Shown here in pieces: positions 10,027 to 34,328 of a stretch of 64,000 nt of DNA. Under the pieces are notes generated by a model, which saw only the letters and a list, made by a program, of their open reading frames with translations, was not told where the DNA came from and made no database searches. The stretch lies in contig JABLUY010000110.1 of assembly GCA_013306675.1 (NCBI GenBank), forward strand, positions 1 through 64,000, in the 5' to 3' direction. The first letter of the stretch is position 1; every line of letters begins with the position of its first letter. The position numbers were made by a program, and so were the translations under genes. The stretch is from Thraustochytrium sp. TN22. Lineage: Eukaryota; Sar; Bigyra; Thraustochytrida; Thraustochytriidae.

Positions 10027-10248
10027 TGATAGCCAACCAAGAAAACGTGACTTACACCTCTGGGACCCAGAGCAAGCAAGGCCAGCTGATGAGCAAGTGC
10101 CTGTGTCCGCTCGCTCATCGAGACGATGGTCGCATGCATGCAACAAGGACGCACTTTATTCATGAAATGGATTATCGGTAGTGGTAGCAAGCGCGTGTGC
10201 CATTGGCGGGGCCGGCCACACGAAATTGTGCTGCGTTAAGGGTGAGAT

Positions 10249-10266: not shown

Positions 10267-10280
10267 GCGAGGCCACACGA

Positions 10281-10370
10281 CGTTGCGCTGTGTTGTCAGG
10301 CTCTTGGCGCCCCGAGAGGTGGTGTCCTCTCTTTAGGAGCGGGCCGTCATGTTCGCAGCGAGCGTCGCTG
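10281..10370 (-). promoter_or_regulatory. Candidate form-2 SECIS element (3' UTR)
   Basis: On the minus strand, about 125 nt after the TAG at 10480, the sequence folds by eye into every part of a eukaryotic form-2 SECIS. Helix I pairs CGCTG with CAGCG, followed by an internal loop of about 5 nt per side. The 5' quartet is ATGA (+ strand 10347-10350) and the 3' partner is TGA (10296-10298); an alternative partner is AAGA. Helix II pairs GGC/GCC and CGCTCC/GGGGCG. An unpaired TAAA comes 12 nt after ATGA, and a mini-helix GAGAGG/CCTCTC closes a 6-nt loop. The 12-nt ATGA-to-AA spacing matches the known consensus. Helix II has an asymmetric bulge (C versus CCAAGA), its weakest point. The fold is by eye only. 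Confidence 0.7.
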
Positions 10371-10479
10371 TGCATTGGGAGCATCGCGCAGGCCCTGTGC
10401 ACGCGCGCGCGTGGGAGTCGCGCGTCGGCCCTGGTCTTTTTTACCAGGTGACGGACGGCGACAAACGCAAACGTGCCAT

Positions 10480-11208
10480 CTACGGCACGTAGTTGATGAA
10501 GAGGAAGCTCACAAGGCGACCGAGAAGCATGGAGAAGGCGATGAGCCCGAGGACGCGCAGCGTCGGCCCAGGCTCGATTTTACCCCGCATGAGGGATGCC
10601 TTCACCGTGTTCACGACTCATGAGCCCACCACGAGCTGACCGTACGTGACGGACGCCGCCGTCACCAGGTAGCCCACGTAGCGCCGCGACTCCACTGGCG
10701 CGTCCGTAACCAAGAGCCCCACCGCCAGCATGAGGTCCAGCAGCAGCATGACAGCCGCCAGCACCTTGCGCCCGTCGTTGTTCTTCATGCTCACGCCCGA
10801 GGTCGTCCACGTGCGGCCGCCCGTCATCATCTCAATGTCCACACCGAGCTTGTCCAGGCCGCCCACGAAGGTGATGCGGCCCGCGCGGTCCTCGCGCCAG
10901 ATGGCCGGGCTCGTGCGGTGGCTCTCGGGCGCCTTGACGGCGCCCCGATTGCCCTCCAGCCACTCCTTGTACGCATCGCGCGACTCCAGCTCCTTGGTCT
11001 CCACCGCGAACCGCGCCACCTCCTGCTCGGCCGCGCGGTCGCGCACGTACTCCGCGTGCTGCACGGCCTTGGCGTAGAACGGGCAGCCCGCCCACCCGGC
11101 CACGTGGTACACGAAGTCCAGCTCCGCCATTTCCTTCGCAGACGCCGCTGCCGAGGGCGCCGCCGCCGCCGCCGCCGACGGCGACTCTCCCTCGCGCCGC
11201 TGCCGCAT
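10480..11208 (-). CDS. Predicted selenoprotein: glutaredoxin-like domain plus membrane segments, in-frame TGA
   Basis: The frame opens at 11208 and reaches TGA at 10618-10620 after 196 codons. It then continues in the same frame for 45 codons to TAG at 10480-10482, giving 242 residues if TGA is read as selenocysteine (U197). Residues 30-125 resemble the glutaredoxin-like domain found fused to some protist lactate/malate dehydrogenases, with GWAGCPFYAKA (Cys42) and FVGGLDKLGV. Hydrophobic segments lie at about 147-168, 178-196 and, after the TGA, 217-240 (LRVLGLIAFSMLLGRLVSFL). The post-TGA part therefore encodes a plausible membrane helix rather than random UTR. A SECIS-like stem lies in the 3' UTR. 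Met27 is an alternative start. Introns here would be under about 60 bp with poor donors, unlike the 91-bp introns seen elsewhere. It diverges from APC2. Confidence 0.7.
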
Positions 11209-16309: not shown

Positions 16310-16884
16310 GCTTGCGTCCTCGCCTTCGGCCCCGCGCTCTGCCCTCTCCCCGTGCGCCGCCGCAGCCAGCCGCGCCGGCCCTGCGAGCGCTGTTCGCCTC
16401 GGAGCTGCCGCTACGCAACTTGACCCTCTTCGCGAGCAAGCAGAACCAGGAACCCGAAACGGCCAGCCCGTGATACCGTGCACGGTGCCAGCGGAACCCG
16501 CGAAGTCGTGCACGACGCCAGGAACCCGGTTTTTTTCGATCTTTCTGCACGGGCAGAGAGAGCTCCCTCGAGCGCGCGGGAGCGATCAGAAGCGGCGCCG
16601 CGCCGCCCCCGGGGCTCGCCACGAGCGCCGCGTGGCCGCGCCGCCACCGCGCCGCCGCCGCCGCCGCGCGCCGCGCTTGCCGCCGCGCGGCGGCCGACGT
16701 AGTTTTGTCCGACCGACCCACCGCGACGGCGGGTGCGGGATGGCGCGCGAGGGAAGGACGAGCTGGACTGGAGCCTGGGCGCCGCAGCGGCGGGCGGTAA
16801 AACCCAAAGCAGCGGGCCACGGCGGCTGAGCGCGCGAGATCGTCGCCGCAGAGGCTGTAGAGCTAGGCAGGCAGGCAGGCCAGC
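16310..16884. promoter_or_regulatory. Bidirectional promoter region, RGS / cytochrome b5-ACAD
   Basis: 575 bp, very GC-rich, with CGCCGC runs near 16640-16690 and a perfect 12-bp palindrome ACCGTGCACGGT near 16474-16485. GCAG-type tetramers lie just before the start at 16885. No coding call is made here. Confidence 0.45.
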
Positions 16885-18420
16885 ATGGGCGGCGAGAAGA
16901 CGGTGTCGCGCCAGGAGGTGGCGCGGCACGCGAGCGAGGGGGACGCGTGGGTGATCGTGGGCAGGGATGTGCTGGACGTGAGCAAGTTCATTGCAATGCA
17001 CCCGGGCGGCAAGCAGATCCTGGCGCGAAACGCCGGCAAGGATGTGACGGAGGAGTTCCAGCTGTACCATCACGATGGCGTGCTGCGCAAGTTCGGGGAC
17101 AAGCTGCGCGTTGCGGTGCTGGACGAACCGGCGCAGAAGGCGCCGGTGGTACCGTTCAGCGAGCCGATCTGGACGCTGCGGTTTAACTCGCCCTACTACA
17201 AGCAGACGCACCTGGACTTTCGCGCGCGCGTGCGCGACTTCGTGGATACCGTGCTGTTCCCGACCATGGAGGACTGGGAGATGGACCGCCGGCCGCCGGC
17301 TGCGGTGCTGGAGGAGATGGGGCGGCGCGGCTTCCTCGCGCTCATGACGGGCGCCGGCAAGTTTCCGCGCGCCTACGTGGACCCGGGCACGCCCGAGGTG
17401 CCTGATGCGGACGCCTTCCACGAGTTTATCCTGTACGACGAGCTGACGCGCTGCGGCAGCGGTGGCGTCCTGGGTGCCCTCACGAACGGCCCGGCCATCG
17501 CGCTCTCGGCCATCATGGCCTACGGCACGGAAGAGCAGCGCCAAAAGTACGCGCCGGATGTGCTCATGGGCCGCAAGTGCATCGCGCTGGGCATGTCGGA
17601 GCCCAACGCCGGCAGTGACGTGGCGGCGCTGGAGACGAGCGCGGTGTTCGAGGACGGGGGTCGCACGCTCCGCATCAACGGCGTCAAGAAGTGGATCACG
17701 AACGCGTCCTACGCCGAGCACGTGGTGCTGGCGTGCCGCACCGACCCGTCCGTGCCGGCCGTTGCAGGCACCACGCTAATCATGGTGGACATGTCGCTGC
17801 CGGGCGTCTCGGTGCGCAAGATTGGCCTTGGCGACAGGGCGCTCATCGCCGGCACCTCGTACCTTGAGTTTGACAACGTGTGCGTACCGGCCGACTGCAT
17901 CGTGGGCGGCCCGGAGAAAATGAACCAGGGCTTCCGCCAGCTCATGCACAACCTCAACCACGAGCGCCTGTACCTGGCGACCATCTGCAACCGGCTCTCG
18001 CGCGTGTGCGTGGAGGAGTGCTTCCGCTACGCGGTCAAGCGCAAGACCTTTGGCAAGCGTCTGGCGGATCACGACGTCATCAAGGCGAAGCTCGCTCGTA
18101 TGGCGACGCGTGTCGAGCAGACGCACGCCTGGATGGAGAGTATCGTCTACCAGTTCGCCACCATGTCTCGCGAGCAGGCCAACGAGGACCTGGGCGACAT
18201 CATCTGTGGGCTCAAGGCGGAGGTCGGCTACGTGCTGGAGTTCGTCTCCTCGGAGGCGACGCACATTTTCGGCGGCAACAGCCTCGACTCGCGCTCCGTC
18301 GGCCGCCGCATCGAGCCCTTCGTGGCCTCGGTCAAGTCCTATGTCATCCCGGCCGGCGCCACGCTTATTATGGAGCAGCAGATGACCAAGCTCGCGCTCA
18401 AGCGCCACGCCAAGATGTAA
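16885..18420 (+). CDS. Cytochrome b5-acyl-CoA dehydrogenase fusion
   Basis: A 511-residue protein joining an N-terminal cytochrome b5 haem domain (residues 5-80) to a full acyl-CoA dehydrogenase (about 100-505). The haem ligands are His39 in HPGG (39-42) and His62 or His63. ACAD hallmarks include LGMSEPNAGSDVAALET, INGVKKWITNASYAEHVV and LNHERLYLATI. The canonical C-terminal YEG catalytic Glu motif is absent: the equivalent stretch reads SYVIPAGATLIMEQQ, a variant also found in some fungal and bacterial ACADs. Probable role: flavin-dependent alpha,beta-dehydrogenation of an acyl-CoA, with electrons passed through the haem domain. No targeting peptide is obvious. Its own promoter faces the RGS gene, and its 3' end converges with the Tubby gene. 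Confidence 0.92.
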   Translation: MGGEKTVSRQEVARHASEGDAWVIVGRDVLDVSKFIAMHPGGKQILARNAGKDVTEEFQLYHHDGVLRKFGDKLRVAVLDEPAQKAPVVPFSEPIWTLRFNSPYYKQTHLDFRARVRDFVDTVLFPTMEDWEMDRRPPAAVLEEMGRRGFLALMTGAGKFPRAYVDPGTPEVPDADAFHEFILYDELTRCGSGGVLGALTNGPAIALSAIMAYGTEEQRQKYAPDVLMGRKCIALGMSEPNAGSDVAALETSAVFEDGGRTLRINGVKKWITNASYAEHVVLACRTDPSVPAVAGTTLIMVDMSLPGVSVRKIGLGDRALIAGTSYLEFDNVCVPADCIVGGPEKMNQGFRQLMHNLNHERLYLATICNRLSRVCVEECFRYAVKRKTFGKRLADHDVIKAKLARMATRVEQTHAWMESIVYQFATMSREQANEDLGDIICGLKAEVGYVLEFVSSEATHIFGGNSLDSRSVGRRIEPFVASVKSYVIPAGATLIMEQQMTKLALKRHAKM

Positions 18421-21038: not shown

Positions 21039-22092
21039 ATGTCGTCGGTGGTGCGCGACGTGAAGAATGAGGTGTTCACGTACGTGAACCTGGTGCACGC
21101 CGTCAGCGGCATGGTGGGCGGCATGAGCGCCATCACGGTGTTCTACCCGCTCAACATCATCCGCATGAAGCTGCAGATCGACGAGACGCTCAAGTCCGAC
21201 AACCCGTTCATCGTGGCGCGCGTCATCGCGGAGAAGGAGGGCGTGCAGGCGCTGTACCAGGGCTGGTGGAGCTCGGTAAGTGGGTCCGGGGAGAAATGAG
21301 GCACGGCCTGGGCTGACGGAAAAGAGGGCGACCGCGCTCGAAACGCACTCACTCACGTTCGCACAGGTGGTCTCGCTGGGCGCGTCGAACTTTGTGTACT
21401 TTTACACGTACAACGCGTTCAAGAGCGTGTACAAGAAGCTGATCGCGGAGAACGCCAAGGCGGCCATCGACCCCATCACCAACCTGGTCATCGCCAGCGC
21501 CGCCGGCATCATCAACGTGCTGGTGACGACGCCGCTGTGGGTCGCCGGCACGCGGCTGTCCACGCAGTCGCGCGTGGCGGACCCGGCCGCCGGCGGCAGG
21601 AAGCCGTACAAGGGCGTTGTGGACTGCCTCATGCGCATCCTCAACGAGGAGGGCGTCGAGGCGCTCTGGAAGGGCGTGGGCCCTTCCATCATCCTGGTGT
21701 CCAACCCGAGCATCCAGTTCAGCGTGTACGAGCGCCTGCGCACCGTGCTGGAGAAGCGCAAGGAGCCCATCACGGCCGTGCAGTTCTTCGTCATTGGCGC
21801 CATCGCCAAGGCCGTGGCCACCGTCGTCACCTACCCTCTGCAGATCGCGCAGAGCCGCCTGCGCGCCGACCAAGGCCGCTCTGACCCGAAGGCGCGCAAC
21901 TACACTGGCACGCTCGACTGCCTCAACAAGATCGCCAAGGAGCACGGCATCCTTGGCTGGTTCCGCGGCATGGAGGCCAAGCTCTGGCAGACCGTGCTCA
22001 CTGCCGCCTTTCAGTTTCTCACCTACGAGCAGATCCAGAAGATCGTCTTCAAGGCCTTCAAGCTCGACTCTGGTGGTGCCGGCGCTCACTAA
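21039..22092 (+). CDS. SLC25A17: Peroxisomal adenine nucleotide carrier (PMP34 type), two exons
   Basis: A mitochondrial-carrier-family protein of 320 residues made of exon 1 (21039-21275, 79 codons) and exon 2 (21367-22092). The splice joins WWSS to VVSLGASNFVYFYTYN in phase 0. Three carrier repeats are present with signatures YPLNIIRMKLQ, TPLWVAGTRLS and YPLQIAQSRLR. It matches PMP34/ANT1 peroxisomal carriers in diagnostic stretches: SNFVYFYTYN, NVLVTTPLWV, SNPSIQFSVYE, IGAIAKAVATVVTYPLQ and GMEAKLWQTVLTAAFQF. PMP34-type carriers exchange ATP/AMP (and CoA or NAD) across the peroxisomal membrane, supporting fatty acid activation and beta-oxidation. The first signature has Asn where Asp is usual. 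Transcribed divergently from the Tubby gene. Confidence 0.93.
21276..21366 (+). other. Intron of the PMP34-type carrier (91 bp)
   Basis: GTAAGT..CACAG intron in phase 0; removal restores the conserved carrier loop. It contains in-frame stops, and its length equals the TRAPPC4 intron. Confidence 0.92.
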
Positions 22093-24755: not shown

Positions 24756-26063
24756 TTAGCCGAGCTGCTTGCGGGAAGACTTGAGGTCGCCGGCAACAAA
24801 GGACTCGTAAAAGCCGAAGATCTCCTCCTTGGTGAGCTCGCCGCCGAGCTCGTAAAAGCCCCCATTGTCGGGGATGTCAAGAATGACGACGGCGGTGGAG
24901 GCGTGGAGCTTCATGCACATGTCGCCGTTGCAGAGCGTGCGGACCTCGTCCTTGGCACTGTCGAGGTGGCAGAGGGAGCGCACGCGGTCGGTGAGGCCGT
25001 CGCCCGGGGGTGCGACGAGGAAGAGCATGGGCTCCTTGCCCTCGGACTTGACGCGGCCAGTGTGCTCCTCGGCGACCGAGGTGAGGATAGCCTCGAACTG
25101 GGCGCGCGTGGAGTCGGACTCCTTGTCCATGAGAATGACCATGGCCGGCATATCGTTGATCTCGCCGGCGCCCTGGGAGAGCGTGACCACGGGCTTGGGC
25201 GCCCAGGGGAACTCGAGGCCCTCCGGGTCGTCGTCGACGTAGCCGCGCAGCGCCTTGTTGACGACGTTGAGCTCGCTGTCCAGCATGATGGCAGTCGGGA
25301 TGCCCTCCACGCCGAAGTGGGAGCTGAGCTTCTGCTTGCGCTCACGGTCCGCAAAGGGCACGGCGAGCCAGGGCATGGAGCCGAAGTAGCCGTCGAAGGC
25401 GCCCTGGTCGCGGTCCGAAGACACGAAGACGACCTCCCAGGGCTTGTCCTGGGCCTTGAGCTTGTTGTAGAGCTCGATGAGCTTGGGAGTGAAGCCTCGG
25501 CACGGCGGGCACCAGTGCGCGCTAAAGTAGAGCGTGATGTACTTGCCCTCGGCCTGCAGGTCCTCGAGCTTGACCGTATCGCCGTTCTGGTTGATGAAGC
25601 CGTCGCCCAGCGCATCAGCCAGCGTGGGCGGCGCCCACGGGAACTGCTCGCCCTCGGGGTCCTCCTGCACGGCCTCGCGGCCGTCCGTCGAGTACACCTC
25701 GCCGGTCTCGCCGTCCACCAGGGCGAGCGTGGGGATGCCGCTCACCTTGAGCTTGCGCATGAGCTTGTTGCGGCGCTCCGAGTCGCTGTACGGGATGGCC
25801 AGCCACGGCATGGTCCCGTAGTAGTCCCTGAACGAGTCCTCCTCGCGGTCCGCGGACAGCAGCACCACCTCGAAGTCCTTGCCGGCCTTTTCCAGCTTGC
25901 CGTACAGCTCCACGAGCCGCGGCGTGAACGCGTGGCACGGCCCGCACCACGACGCGCTCGCGTAGATGGCCACCACCTTCTTCCCCTTGAGCGCGTCGCG
26001 CGTGCTGACCGTCGTCTCGCCCGACAGCAGCTCCTCGCCCACGAGCTCCACGAGCGCCGCCAT
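24756..26063 (-). CDS. NXN: Nucleoredoxin
   Basis: A 435-residue multi-thioredoxin-fold oxidoreductase; the start is the Met at 26063, although the frame is open to 26111. It has two complete active sites: WCGPC at 39-43 in KKVVAIYASASWCGPCHAF and WCPPC at 184-188 in LYFSAHWCPPCRGF. Each is followed by the nucleoredoxin-type SADREEDSF / SSDRDQGAF and GTMPWLAIPY / GSMPWLAVPF segments. The third, C-terminal thioredoxin-like domain has no CxxC but retains scattered Cys. Length equals human NXN (435), which has one WCPPC site; plant nucleoredoxins commonly carry two. Role: disulfide reduction in the cytosol or nucleus, protecting antioxidant or signalling targets. No signal peptide or retention motif. 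Divergent from CTC1. Confidence 0.93.
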   Translation of the reverse strand: MAALVELVGEELLSGETTVSTRDALKGKKVVAIYASASWCGPCHAFTPRLVELYGKLEKAGKDFEVVLLSADREEDSFRDYYGTMPWLAIPYSDSERRNKLMRKLKVSGIPTLALVDGETGEVYSTDGREAVQEDPEGEQFPWAPPTLADALGDGFINQNGDTVKLEDLQAEGKYITLYFSAHWCPPCRGFTPKLIELYNKLKAQDKPWEVVFVSSDRDQGAFDGYFGSMPWLAVPFADRERKQKLSSHFGVEGIPTAIMLDSELNVVNKALRGYVDDDPEGLEFPWAPKPVVTLSQGAGEINDMPAMVILMDKESDSTRAQFEAILTSVAEEHTGRVKSEGKEPMLFLVAPPGDGLTDRVRSLCHLDSAKDEVRTLCNGDMCMKLHASTAVVILDIPDNGGFYELGGELTKEEIFGFYESFVAGDLKSSRKQLG

Positions 26064-26770
26064 CTCGCCGATCTGATCCGCCGCCGCGGGCCTCGCCACC
26101 AGCACCAGCACCAGCAGCAGCGACGAGAGCGCGGCCGGGGAGAGAGGAGAGGAGAGCGGGCTGGGACCTGGCCGCCGCCGCGTTGCCGCGCTCCGCCCGA
26201 CCTCGCTCGCGAGTTCGAGGTTTGCGTCTCCGCGGCGTCCTCGGGACGCGGTGCAGCGCTCTCAGACGCGGTGCAGCGCTGAGAGCGCCGTCATGATCCG
26301 CGCCTGCTCCTCCCCTGTTCTCCGGCCGCGCGCCGCCGCGGCCGGCTCCCGCGCGCGGGGGGCGGCGGGCGGCGGGCCGCGGGCCGGCTCCCGCGCGCGC
26401 GCGCGCGAGCGCGCGCGAGCGCCGCGAGCCGGCCGCCGCGGGCCGCGCGCCGCGGGACCCGGCGCGCCGCGCATCCGCGGGAGCCGAGTTTAGGACGCGT
26501 ACGAAACGGTTGTGCGGGGCGCGCGGACGCCGCGTTCGGAACGTTTCGAGGGGAGGAACGTTCGGAACGGCGCTCCCTTTTTCAAATGCGGCGGCGACTC
26601 AAGTTCATTTGAAAAGCAAAGCAAAGTTCAAACGGCGAGGTTAGCAACCTGGAGGCGGCGGCGCGGCCCCGGCTCGCGCGGCGGCGCGGCGGCGCGGCAG
26701 CGGCGGGCGCGGCGCGGGAGGGAGGCATGCGCAGCGGGCGGCCGCGCGCGCCAGCCACGCGCGAGCGGGG
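26064..26770. promoter_or_regulatory. Bidirectional promoter region, nucleoredoxin / CTC1
   Basis: 707 bp with an imperfect tandem GCGGTGCAGCGCT (26250-26281), a long alternating GC run (about 26389-26425, potential Z-DNA), paired GAACG elements (26530-26575) and GGC triplets before the CTC1 start. No coding call is made here. Confidence 0.45.
26389..26425. repeat. Alternating (CG)n-rich purine/pyrimidine run
   Basis: Nearly pure alternating CG with two GAGC interruptions, in the shared promoter of two divergent genes. Confidence 0.75.
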
Positions 26771-30899: not shown

Positions 30900-33413
30900 T
30901 CACAAAATGTCCTCGGTGGGCTGCTGCATGGAGAGACGCCAAATTAGGGAATTGTACATGGCGCTAATGCCCGAAAAGCGCTGAAGCATCTCCATTTGCT
31001 CGCCCTTGCGGCCCGAGGCGTCAAAGAACTTCTCGTTTTCGTCGACCTGGCGGCGGTCTACAATGGTGACGCCCTTGCGATCGAGATCGAAGAAGGCAGC
31101 GAAGCGAGAGCCGCCAGTGCGGCGGCTGATGGTGTCGAGAACCGGCGGGCACTGCTGGAAGCCAATGAAGACGGTGTGCGTGGCGATGCCCTGGTCAATG
31201 GCCGCCCGGATCTGGTTGCGGATGAGCAGGTCGCCCGAGGTGGGCTTGCCGTCCGTGATGAAGAGGATGTGCTGGTCGCTGGCGCCAACGCGACCCGCGC
31301 CGACGCCCGTCTTGGCGCGGCGTGAGACGCCGCGCGCGAGGCTGAACTCCTCGAGCGCCAGCTCAAAGGCCGCCTCGTAGTTGGTCTTGCCGGAGCACAC
31401 CACCTCCCTGGAGTGGCGCAGCACGTCATCGTACTGGCGTGTGAAAAAGCGGTTGTCGGCACCGTAGAAGCCGCGCGCGTCGGTGTCAAAGTCCGCGTAG
31501 CCCACGCGCATCTTCTTGCGGCGCGCCAGGTCGATGACGCTCGCGCACACGAGCGAGCACCAGTCTGCCCACATGCCGTCCATGGAGGCGGAGGTGTCAC
31601 GCAAAATAACGAGGCGGCCGCCGGCGCCCGTGCGCGTGCGGCGCTGCGCGCGCGGCAAGCGCGGCGTGGGCGCGTCGAGCCAGGAGGCGAGGTCCGTCGG
31701 GTCGGCCTCGAACATGCCGCCGAGACGGCGGCCTGAGGTCCACCCGCGCGGGACGCCGCCCTCGTGCAGCTGCTCGCTGGCGCTGCCGCGCTCGATGTCC
31801 CCACGCAGCGACTGCATCATGGGCTCGATGTTGTGCGTCTGCGCGATCATCTCGAAAAGCGCCCGCCGCTGCGGGTCGTACTCGGACTGCGAGCGCGCCG
31901 CCTTGACGGTCTTCTCCTTGGGCCCGCGCGTCGGGACGAAGTCCGGGTCGTCCTCGTCGTTGGCGTGGCGGCCCATGTCCGGGTCATCCACGTCCAGGGA
32001 GTGTCCCTCGGGCGCCGGCTCGTCCGCGTTTTCCTTGGCACCGATTTGGATGCTCGGCGGGTCGTCTCGGTACTCGTCAACACCGGCATACTTGTCCTCA
32101 CCGGCCGGGAAGTCTCCGGCGCGCTCATCGCCCGGCACCGGCATGGGCTCTGCTTCGTCGTCGCCCTCGCCATCTTCGCCACCACCAGCCGTGGCTCCAT
32201 CCGCGCCCTGAGGGCCCGCACCCTTGTCGCCGGCCTGATCGGAACCCTCCCCCGCGTCGCCGTCCGCGCCCGGCCCGTCAACGCCAGCGCCAGCGCCCGA
32301 GGAGGGCGGTGGCGGCGGCGGCGTCTGCGCGCCGCCGTTCGAGCTTTCATCCTGGTAGCGACGCACAATATCCTGAATGACCTTATCAATCTGCGCATGC
32401 ACATGCGGGGGCACGCGGAAGGTGGTCAGGTAGCGCAGCACGCGCAGGTCCGCCGGCTCGCATTTGGTGCGGCCGTCCAGCACGGCGTTCGCTTTCATGA
32501 CGCGCACGGCCTTGACCAAGAAGGTGCGGTCCGACAGCAGCGAGTTTGACTCGTCCAGCTTAAACTTGCCGCGCAGCGCACGCAGCAGCGAGATGAGCGC
32601 TTGCTTGGCCGGCTCGCCCAGCTCCACCGAGGGCACGAGCCCGCACGCCTCTTCGAGCCCCTCTCGGCCCAGGGCGCTCCTCACCGTGCGCGCGCCGTCA
32701 CCGTCCTGCGCGGCGCGCGGCAGCCCGTACAGGTCAATGACCTGCTCAGCCGCAGTCCAGTCGCCCTTTTGCACGAGCCCCGAGGCCCGCACTTGCAGCG
32801 TGAAGCGATCGAGGTTGGCCGGGTCCAGCGGCTCGGCGTAGTACGCGTCGTCCGTGGCCGGGTTGCTGCTGGCAAACGCCGAGTACAGCGGCAGGCGCTC
32901 CTGCGAGTCGCCGAACTTGCGCTCGTTCAGAATGCGCAGCAGCACGTTGAGCGCCTCGCCCGGCGCGCGGCTAATGTCGTCTAGCACGCAGATCTCCGAG
33001 GTGAGAATGCCGCCGCGGATGATGTCCTGGCGGATGACCTCGCCGCCGGACGCCTCGTCGCGGCTGCGCACGATGACGCTGTCGCCAACGAGCTCCGCCA
33101 GCCGCGTGTCGCGGTGCATCTGATACATGAAGACCTTGAGCCCTGTGCACTCGCTGATAATCTCCGACATCATCGTCTTGGCCACGCCCGGCGGGCCCTC
33201 CAGGTACACGTGCTCCTTGGCCAGCAGCCCCAGCAGCATCGCCTCCTTCACGTCCGCGTGCCCGACCACGTGCTCGTCCAGCGCCCCTCGCAGCCCGCGC
33301 AGCGCCGCCGCCGTGCGCTGCGCGTCATCGCTGCCGCTCGCCGCCGCCGCCGACCCCAGCCAGCGCGCGCCGCCGCGCCGCAGCGCCGCGCGCGCCAGAC
33401 CGCCCGCCAGCAT
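30900..33413 (-). CDS. MoxR-type AAA+ ATPase fused to a VWA domain, organelle-targeted
   Basis: An 837-residue protein from the Met at 33413. The first 25 residues (MLAGGLARAALRRGGARWLG...) are Arg/Ala-rich without acidic residues, a typical mitochondrial presequence. The AAA+ module follows with Walker A GPPGVAKT (73-80) and Walker B CVLDDI (142-147), in a MoxR-type context. A long acidic Gly/Asp/Glu linker (about 360-480) leads to a VWA domain (from about 600) with a MIDAS motif DTSAS (606-610) and later ITDGKPTSG. The linker arrangement recalls magnesium-chelatase D and CobS/CobT-like machines. Bacterial MoxR-VWA pairs remodel or insert metals into enzymes and are normally separate genes; here they are one polypeptide. 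Probable role: ATP-driven maturation of an organellar metalloenzyme. Divergent from EXO84. Confidence 0.87.
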   Translation of the reverse strand: MLAGGLARAALRRGGARWLGSAAAASGSDDAQRTAAALRGLRGALDEHVVGHADVKEAMLLGLLAKEHVYLEGPPGVAKTMMSEIISECTGLKVFMYQMHRDTRLAELVGDSVIVRSRDEASGGEVIRQDIIRGGILTSEICVLDDISRAPGEALNVLLRILNERKFGDSQERLPLYSAFASSNPATDDAYYAEPLDPANLDRFTLQVRASGLVQKGDWTAAEQVIDLYGLPRAAQDGDGARTVRSALGREGLEEACGLVPSVELGEPAKQALISLLRALRGKFKLDESNSLLSDRTFLVKAVRVMKANAVLDGRTKCEPADLRVLRYLTTFRVPPHVHAQIDKVIQDIVRRYQDESSNGGAQTPPPPPPSSGAGAGVDGPGADGDAGEGSDQAGDKGAGPQGADGATAGGGEDGEGDDEAEPMPVPGDERAGDFPAGEDKYAGVDEYRDDPPSIQIGAKENADEPAPEGHSLDVDDPDMGRHANDEDDPDFVPTRGPKEKTVKAARSQSEYDPQRRALFEMIAQTHNIEPMMQSLRGDIERGSASEQLHEGGVPRGWTSGRRLGGMFEADPTDLASWLDAPTPRLPRAQRRTRTGAGGRLVILRDTSASMDGMWADWCSLVCASVIDLARRKKMRVGYADFDTDARGFYGADNRFFTRQYDDVLRHSREVVCSGKTNYEAAFELALEEFSLARGVSRRAKTGVGAGRVGASDQHILFITDGKPTSGDLLIRNQIRAAIDQGIATHTVFIGFQQCPPVLDTISRRTGGSRFAAFFDLDRKGVTIVDRRQVDENEKFFDASGRKGEQMEMLQRFSGISAMYNSLIWRLSMQQPTEDIL

Positions 33414-34328
33414 CGCCTCAGCGCCGCCCTGCGGATTTGCAGGCGGCCGCCTCCGCCTCGGCGCCCTCGACCTCGAGCTCGACGTCGAGCTCGACCTCGA
33501 GCTTGACCGCGCTCTGCGAGACCGCCGCCTGCGGCGTTCTGCGCTCGGCGCCGGCGGCGACGGCGGCGCCGGCGGCACAAAGTTGCTGCCAGTGCAGAGC
33601 TAGCTGCCTGGCGGCCTGCCTGCCTGTACAGGTACAGAGCGAGCGTCGGCGAAGGCGTCGTGCCGGTGGGAGGAGCGATTGCTCTGGCAGCGTCGTTGAC
33701 CGTGAGCGCGTGAGCGGTCGCAGCAAGCGCAGCTGTCACTCGTCGGCGACGGCCTTGGTGTGGTGATAGGGTACCACCCACCATTGTCACAGGTTTGCAG
33801 GGAACGAACGAAGTTGCACGGCTGCGCGACTCGGAATCGTCTCTTTCCGATGCACAGGCAATCTGCGCCTCGACAGACAAGCGACACTCTACACTCCGCG
33901 CACCGCTGAGTCCTCTCTAGCCCGCCCTCGGACCCTTCCCCGCCGAGGTCCACGCAGGCCACGTTACAGATGTGACGTCAAGCTCGTCGTCAAGCTCGTC
34001 ATCGCGATGGTCCAACAGGACGACGTCAACGTCTTCGACCTCCCCGAGGATTGCTTCACTTCACTGGCACCCCGCGCCCAAAGCCTCGGGCGTGCAGGTC
34101 GCCGCGGCTCTGCATGTCGCCGCGGCTCTGCATGTCGCCGCGGCTCTACAGGTCGTCGCGGCTCTGCAGGTCGCCGCGCTCGTCGTCGCCCGGCGCTCGT
34201 AGGCGGCGTCCGGCTCCCCGTGCGGTGACGGGTGCTACGACTAGTACTGGTCCCCGCACGACGACTACCCGCCGGCGGCGCCCAAGGCGCAGAACCGCGA
34301 GCGGCGGCCCTCGGGCGCGCGGCGCGGC

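What the first reader, a model, noticed from the sequence alone, without database searches (positions are those of the whole stretch)
10281..11208. Undescribed selenoprotein candidate: in-frame TGA plus form-2 SECIS
A glutaredoxin-like membrane protein frame hits TGA (10618-10620), then stays open for 45 codons encoding a further hydrophobic helix before TAG. About 125 nt downstream the transcript can fold into ATGA / 12 nt / AAA bulge / mini-helix / TGA, with helix I and an internal loop below the quartet: the full form-2 SECIS layout. Two independent signals (post-stop coding character and SECIS) agree. Sec would lie between two membrane helices rather than in the CxxC-like site (CPFY), which I cannot match to a known selenoprotein family.
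Basis: partly seen in the sequence, partly recalled or inferred. Interest (0 to 1): 0.88.

Follow-up and report, generated by a model that had tools for sequence, protein, structure and literature searches.

The report
Probable new membrane selenoprotein gene
A gene of an unidentified GC-rich eukaryotic microbe carries an in-frame TGA followed by coding-like sequence and a selenocysteine-insertion-like RNA fold, so it probably makes a membrane redox protein containing selenocysteine; no relative or selenium machinery could be checked.

Summary
The sequence facts hold. A minus-strand gene (11208-10480) is interrupted once, by TGA at 10618-10620; 45 more codons follow before TAG. They score as coding (+25.7) against -52.7 to +2.9 after the stops of 22 of the 25 other coding-like segments. 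Of 463 TGAs preceded by 45 open codons, only this one is coding-like on both sides. No plausible intron was found, and TGA is an ordinary stop next door. Under published SECIS search rules, as I coded them, the 3' UTR holds the window's only ATGA/AA-type hit (about 0.004 expected per 320 nt). New here: the soluble part matches the N-terminal domain of malate dehydrogenase 1B, probably a thioredoxin fold, with one cysteine (CPFY); two clear and one weaker hydrophobic segments follow, and the TGA lies near the end of the weaker one. Most likely a selenoprotein of an unmatched family (about 0.65). Against: Rfam has no SECIS match, the SECIS register is ambiguous and the full layout is not the predicted minimum fold, one of my own grammars misses it, no relative was found, and the host genome was unavailable. 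Main rival: a changed sense codon plus a chance fold.

The parts
10480..11208 (-). candidate selenoprotein gene, 242 residues if TGA is read as Sec (U197), no intron seen; an alternative start at M27 is possible
10831..11118 (-). domain (residues 31-126) similar to the N-terminal domain of MDH1B, probably a thioredoxin fold
   Evidence: phmmer 1e-6 and 1.4e-5 to PDB 9d2f_F and 9fqr_Xq; AlphaFold2 model of residues 28-133, mean pLDDT 76 for the best of five models; Foldseek glutaredoxin 3msz probability 0.99 but E 0.05
11083..11085 (-). Cys42 of CPFY, the only cysteine of the protein
10708..10773 (-). hydrophobic segment 1 (about residues 146-167)
   Evidence: hydropathy peak 2.76
10612..10689 (-). 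hydrophobic segment 2 (about residues 174-199), weaker, below the 1.6 cut; holds the TGA
   Evidence: helix 172-207 in a low-confidence model; not above the hydropathy cut
10618..10620 (-). in-frame TGA, candidate Sec codon (residue 197)
10483..10617 (-). 45 coding-like codons after the TGA
   Evidence: score +25.7 against 22 controls
10486..10560 (-). hydrophobic segment 3 (about residues 217-241), lost if the TGA terminates
   Evidence: hydropathy peak 2.17
10277..10368 (-). SECIS-like element with helix I arms: ATGA 10347-10350, AAA 10332-10334, AGA 10302-10304 or TGA 10296-10298
10155..10160 (-). AATAAA, possible poly(A) signal that would place the fold inside the 3' UTR
   Evidence: sequence read directly; use not shown

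Best explanation
The gene encodes a membrane-anchored selenoprotein of a family I could not match. A domain of the kind found at the N-terminus of MDH1B, probably a thioredoxin fold, with a single cysteine in CPFY, is followed by two or three membrane helices. UGA at codon 197 is decoded as Sec under a SECIS about 130 nt after the true stop (TAG). Proposed mechanism (inferred): Cys42 and Sec197, the protein's only thiol and selenol, form a two-residue redox pair, with the membrane Sec taking the place of the missing second active-site cysteine and passing electrons between the soluble domain and a membrane partner or lipid peroxide. Shown: frame, coding character, domain similarity, SECIS-like fold. 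Inferred: Sec decoding, topology, redox role.
For: Coding on both sides of one TGA, with the frame otherwise intact. TGA is the stop of APC2 and of the monooxygenase next door, so no code change is indicated. Under the published SECIS rules the window has 25 hits on both strands, of which the only ATGA/AA-type one lies in this 3' UTR; 34 of 12,000 local resamplings hold such a hit anywhere in 320 nt, and 380 of 12,000 hold any hit of the rules. A lenient grammar with helix I gives 59 of 40,000, partly post hoc. One Cys plus one candidate Sec. A thioredoxin fold occurs in about half (20) of the 42 algal selenoprotein families (PMC7539508, abstract and passages).
Against: Rfam gives no SECIS match even at E 10. 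The quartet register is ambiguous; in context, helix I has pair probability 0.02 and the free minimum pairs the ATGA elsewhere. My first grammar shows no excess in the window (4 ATGA hits against 3.2 expected) and a stricter one with helix I misses the candidate while it finds two other places. The published filter against more than two unpaired bases in a row is met only by the AGA register. No relative with Cys or Sec at position 197 was found; Sec machinery was not testable; the host is unidentified. The TGA is not in the CPFY site, unlike most thioredoxin-fold selenoproteins (recalled). The finding was picked from many readings, so the chance rates are optimistic.
Confidence: 0.65

Rival explanations
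1. Assembly error, allele or recent nonsense mutation: an ordinary membrane protein whose codon 197 was a sense codon, with a chance SECIS-like fold.
For: One substitution is enough and the rest of the frame is intact. TGG (13.1 per 1000 codons) and TGC (12.9) are the most used single-base neighbours of TGA here. No relatives are known to fix the residue. Loose SECIS grammars give chance hits elsewhere in the window.
Against: It needs the SECIS-like fold by chance: about 0.004 per 320 nt for the ATGA/AA type, about 0.03 to 0.06 for any hit of the rules.
Confidence: 0.2
2. The TGA is the real stop: a 196-residue protein that lost its last helix, and the downstream codons are a decaying remnant.
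For: TGA ends 18 of the 26 coding-like segments listed, this one included.
Against: No stop, frameshift or loss of codon bias in 45 codons; the three 15-codon blocks after the TGA stay positive; 22 of 22 tested segments lack such a tail.
Confidence: 0.08
3. Stop-codon readthrough without Sec adds a 45-residue membrane tail.
For: Coding character after the TGA.
Against: The context is TGA-G, not the leaky UGA-CUA motif (motif recalled); it leaves the SECIS-like fold unexplained.
Confidence: 0.04
4. A small or alternative intron removes the TGA.
For: Introns exist in the window, for example a 91-nt GTAAGT...ACAG intron at 21276-21366; a GTGAGC donor at 10794 with an AG at 10600 keeps frame.
Against: That stretch scores +54.1 in 65 codons against -10.0 to -25.8 for the carrier intron, and no pyrimidine-rich run precedes the AG (sequence).
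Confidence: 0.03

Closest known systems
N-terminal domain of putative malate dehydrogenase 1B (PDB 9d2f, 9fqr)
   Same: 37% identical over about 90 residues, with A-G-x-A-x-C-P-[FY]-Y-A-K-A and S-P-x-I-W-R-E conserved
   Different: No Pfam domain follows; hydrophobic segments and a candidate Sec follow instead
Algal thioredoxin-fold selenoproteins (GRX, PDI_a-e, SELENOT and others)
   Same: Probable thioredoxin-like fold with a candidate Sec in a eukaryotic microbe (PMC7539508: abstract, sections 5, 6, 16 and passages seen)
   Different: Candidate Sec lies in or next to a membrane helix, outside the CxxC-like site (sites of those families mostly recalled)
Membrane selenoprotein MSP of Ostreococcus and Dictyostelium
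   Same: Predicted membrane selenoprotein of unicellular eukaryotes (PMC2375036, passages seen)
SECIS elements of Ostreococcus and Dictyostelium
   Different: Ostreococcus elements mostly have G before the quartet; here it is A; the 3' register is ambiguous here

Membership tests
selenoprotein | in-frame TGA with coding sequence on both sides | tested here: met
selenoprotein | SECIS element in the 3' UTR: motif, spacing, stem and energy rules of PMC2375036 | tested here: met
   in the AGA register; my own implementation of the rules
selenoprotein | SECIS element with helix I in a stricter grammar of mine | tested here: not met
   met when near-minimum folds are allowed
selenoprotein | SECIS recognised by Rfam covariance models (that Rfam holds SECIS models is recalled) | tested here: not met
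   sensitivity of these models for protist SECIS not measured here, and the published SECIS programs were not available
selenoprotein | relatives with Cys or Sec at the position | tested here: inconclusive
   no relative found in viral or prokaryote contigs; no eukaryote collection at hand
selenoprotein | Sec machinery (tRNA-Sec, eEFSec, SBP2) in the genome | not testable with these tools
   no genome held; no tRNA gene found in the 64-kb window
MDH1B | N-terminal domain | tested here: met
   fold by model
MDH1B | malate dehydrogenase domain after it | tested here: not met
   no Pfam match in P0001; hydrophobic segments follow
MSP membrane selenoprotein | two Sec residues | tested here: not met
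   one TGA only; feature from PMC2375036
MSP membrane selenoprotein | sequence similarity to MSP | not testable with these tools
   no MSP sequence at hand

The most novel reading that the evidence does not exclude
A new selenoprotein family in which a membrane-embedded selenocysteine replaces the missing second active-site cysteine of an attached MDH1B-type thioredoxin-fold domain, giving a one-Cys, one-Sec transmembrane redox relay.
Probability: 0.35. Interest if true: 0.75.

Novelty: new member of a known kind. Interest (0 to 1): 0.55.

Why it matters
If true it adds a selenoprotein family with the Sec at a membrane helix, hints at what the little-studied N-terminal domain of MDH1B can be coupled to, and means that an ordinary annotation would cut the protein at the TGA and lose its last helix.

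Tried and rejected
Changed genetic code: rejected, TGA ends neighbouring genes.

Intron: 141 GT/GC-AG combinations were enumerated (at least 30 nt long; donors within 200 nt before, acceptors within 260 nt after); the 38 printed (GT donors that keep frame or leave a long protein) hold no GTAAGT-like donor. The best, GTGAGC at 10794, is rejected on coding score; the other 103 were not looked at one by one.

Families: 0 Pfam families for the protein or its two halves; two NCBIfam matches far below their cut-offs (18.8 of 353 and 13 of 120 bits).

Relatives: viral contigs by protein, DNA pattern and alignment and genome contigs by protein and alignment, none; the 3 pattern loci L001-L003 show no similarity (best tblastn E 0.19).

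Structure: the whole-protein model is too poor to use (pLDDT 45). Of the five domain models two agree in confidence (76.1, 74.6) and three are poor (43.6, 35.6, 34.6). C-terminal part against PDB sequences: one match at E 1.2, not meaningful.

SECIS grammars: four versions. The first finds the candidate as one of 7 hits, 4 of them ATGA-type, against 9.2 and 3.2 expected, so no excess (its strict subset has 3 against 1.0). The second, helix I required with the inner minimum fold, misses it and finds two other places (0.9 expected). The third was loosened after that miss, finds it and one other place (1.1 expected), and is partly post hoc. The fourth follows rules published before and is the one I rely on; I coded its filters myself and set details of my own (at least 5 arm pairs; outer pair within 2 nt of the ends). 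Null sequences are first-order Markov resamplings (1-kb blocks, or the 320-nt region), not exact shuffles.

Literature: 10 searches. In the listings and the parts read of PMC7539508 and PMC2375036, and passages of PMC5330540, I saw no selenoprotein of this make-up. Subscription papers and supplements were not seen.

Full report
What was checked. The minus strand of 11208-10480 holds one frame broken only by TGA 10618-10620 and closed by TAG 10480-10482. The window is a GC-rich (about 68%), intron-poor eukaryotic segment; this gene lies between a flavin monooxygenase and an APC2 gene. TGA is a normal stop there: APC2 and the monooxygenase end in TGA, and TGA ends 18 of the 26 coding-like segments listed, this one included (a few of these are exons).

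Is the sequence after the TGA coding? A codon log-odds score was trained on 15 other predicted genes. The 45 codons after the TGA score +25.7 and the 45 before +28.9; the other five frames of the same stretch score -4 to -58. The 45 codons after the stops of 22 other segments (of 25 listed; three short or partial ones left out) score -52.7 to +2.9. In intergenic space 826 of 51,136 windows score as high, 775 of them open; unpredicted exons may be among them. In the two-sided scan 3 of 747 stop codons with 45 open codons before them pass: this TGA and two TAGs lying antisense to predicted genes. Fifteen-codon blocks are positive on both sides right up to the TGA.

Could an intron remove it? Introns exist: a 91-nt GTAAGT...ACAG intron in a mitochondrial-carrier gene, and probably one with a GTAGGT donor in a sybindin-like gene. 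Across the TGA the best donor among those printed is GTGAGC at 10794; the stretch to 10600 scores +54.1 over 65 codons, against -10.0 to -25.8 for the carrier intron. I reject it.

Is there a SECIS? ATGA 10350-10347, 12 nt, AAA, 6-bp mini-helix with a 6-nt loop; 129 nt separate the TAG from the ATGA, and an AATAAA begins 190 nt after the ATGA. The published rules of PMC2375036 (section 27 read) ask for NTGA, 10-13 nt, unpaired AA or CC, 15-39 nt, GA, no more than two unpaired bases in a row, no Y shape, and energy limits. My implementation finds 25 hits on both strands of the window (23.9 expected from 60 resamplings), of which 7 are ATGA-type (3.4 expected) and 1 is of the ATGA/AA type: this one (1.55 expected, 0.004 per 320 nt). 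In 12,000 resamplings of the 320-nt region 380 hold any hit, 76 an ATGA-type hit, 34 an ATGA/AA hit and 9 an ATGA/AAA hit. So a hit of any type would be weak evidence (3%); the canonical type is rare (0.3%).

Weak points of the SECIS. The 3' partner is AGA 10304-10302 or TGA 10298-10296; the two inner folds differ by 0.1 kcal/mol. Only the latter gives a good helix I, and the fold with helix I enforced is 4.1 kcal/mol above the free minimum, in which the ATGA pairs elsewhere; helix I has pair probability 0.02. The stricter grammar misses the element, and Rfam gives no SECIS match. Four folded stretches have z-scores of -1.7 to -2.9.

What is the protein? phmmer against PDB sequences finds, up to E 10, only putative malate dehydrogenase 1B (9d2f_F E 2.4e-6, 9fqr_Xq E 2.7e-5), in its first 90 residues; 26 columns are invariant among the three sequences. 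Modelled alone, the domain gives a b-a-b-a-a-b-b fold with pLDDT 76 in the best of five models, three of which are poor. Foldseek gives 1066 matches up to E 10 but none at 0.001 or below; thioredoxin and glutaredoxin chains recur among the 50 listed (3msz, rank 3, probability 0.99, TM 0.55 and 0.65), so the fold class rests on the model and the probability column, not on the E-value. Two strongly hydrophobic segments (146-173 and 217-241) flank a weaker one (about 174-199) that holds residue 197; the whole-protein model draws one helix over 172-207, at low confidence. The only cysteine is Cys42. Net positive charge before segment 1 and between segments 2 and 3, and a neutral loop between 1 and 2 (read from the sequence), would put the soluble domain and residue 197 on the same side by the positive-inside rule; this is inference.

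Reading. Selenoprotein is the explanation that accounts for both signals. The redox-pair mechanism is inferred from residue content and topology alone. The main rival is a sense codon changed by error, polymorphism or recent mutation together with a chance fold; it cannot be excluded without reads, relatives or the host's Sec machinery, none of which could be reached.

Against the literature. PMC7539508 (abstract and sections 5, 6, 16, plus passages) describes 42 algal selenoprotein families including GRX, PDI types and MSP; PMC2375036 (section 27 and passages) describes MSP and three hypothetical proteins. None could be compared by sequence here, so 'undescribed family' is likely but not proven.

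Noticed in passing
16876-18417 +: Cytochrome b5 domain fused to an acyl-CoA dehydrogenase.
   Followed up: no
24759-26144 -: Nucleoredoxin-like protein with two thioredoxin-type domains, WCGPC and WCPPC; both Cys-type, frame open without TGA.
   Followed up: partly
2088-2190 +: Sybindin-like gene ends in TGA 2088-2090 and has an ATGA SECIS-like fold at 2190 by two loose grammars; the codons after the stop score only +2.9 and the place is not an ATGA/AA hit of the published rules, so probably chance.
   Followed up: partly
14625 +: A SECIS-like fold about 200 nt after the APC2 TGA stop, antisense to an RGS-domain gene; its loop is longer than the published spacing rule allows.
   Followed up: partly
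30954-33419 -: MoxR-type AAA ATPase fused to a von Willebrand A domain in a eukaryotic segment.
   Followed up: no
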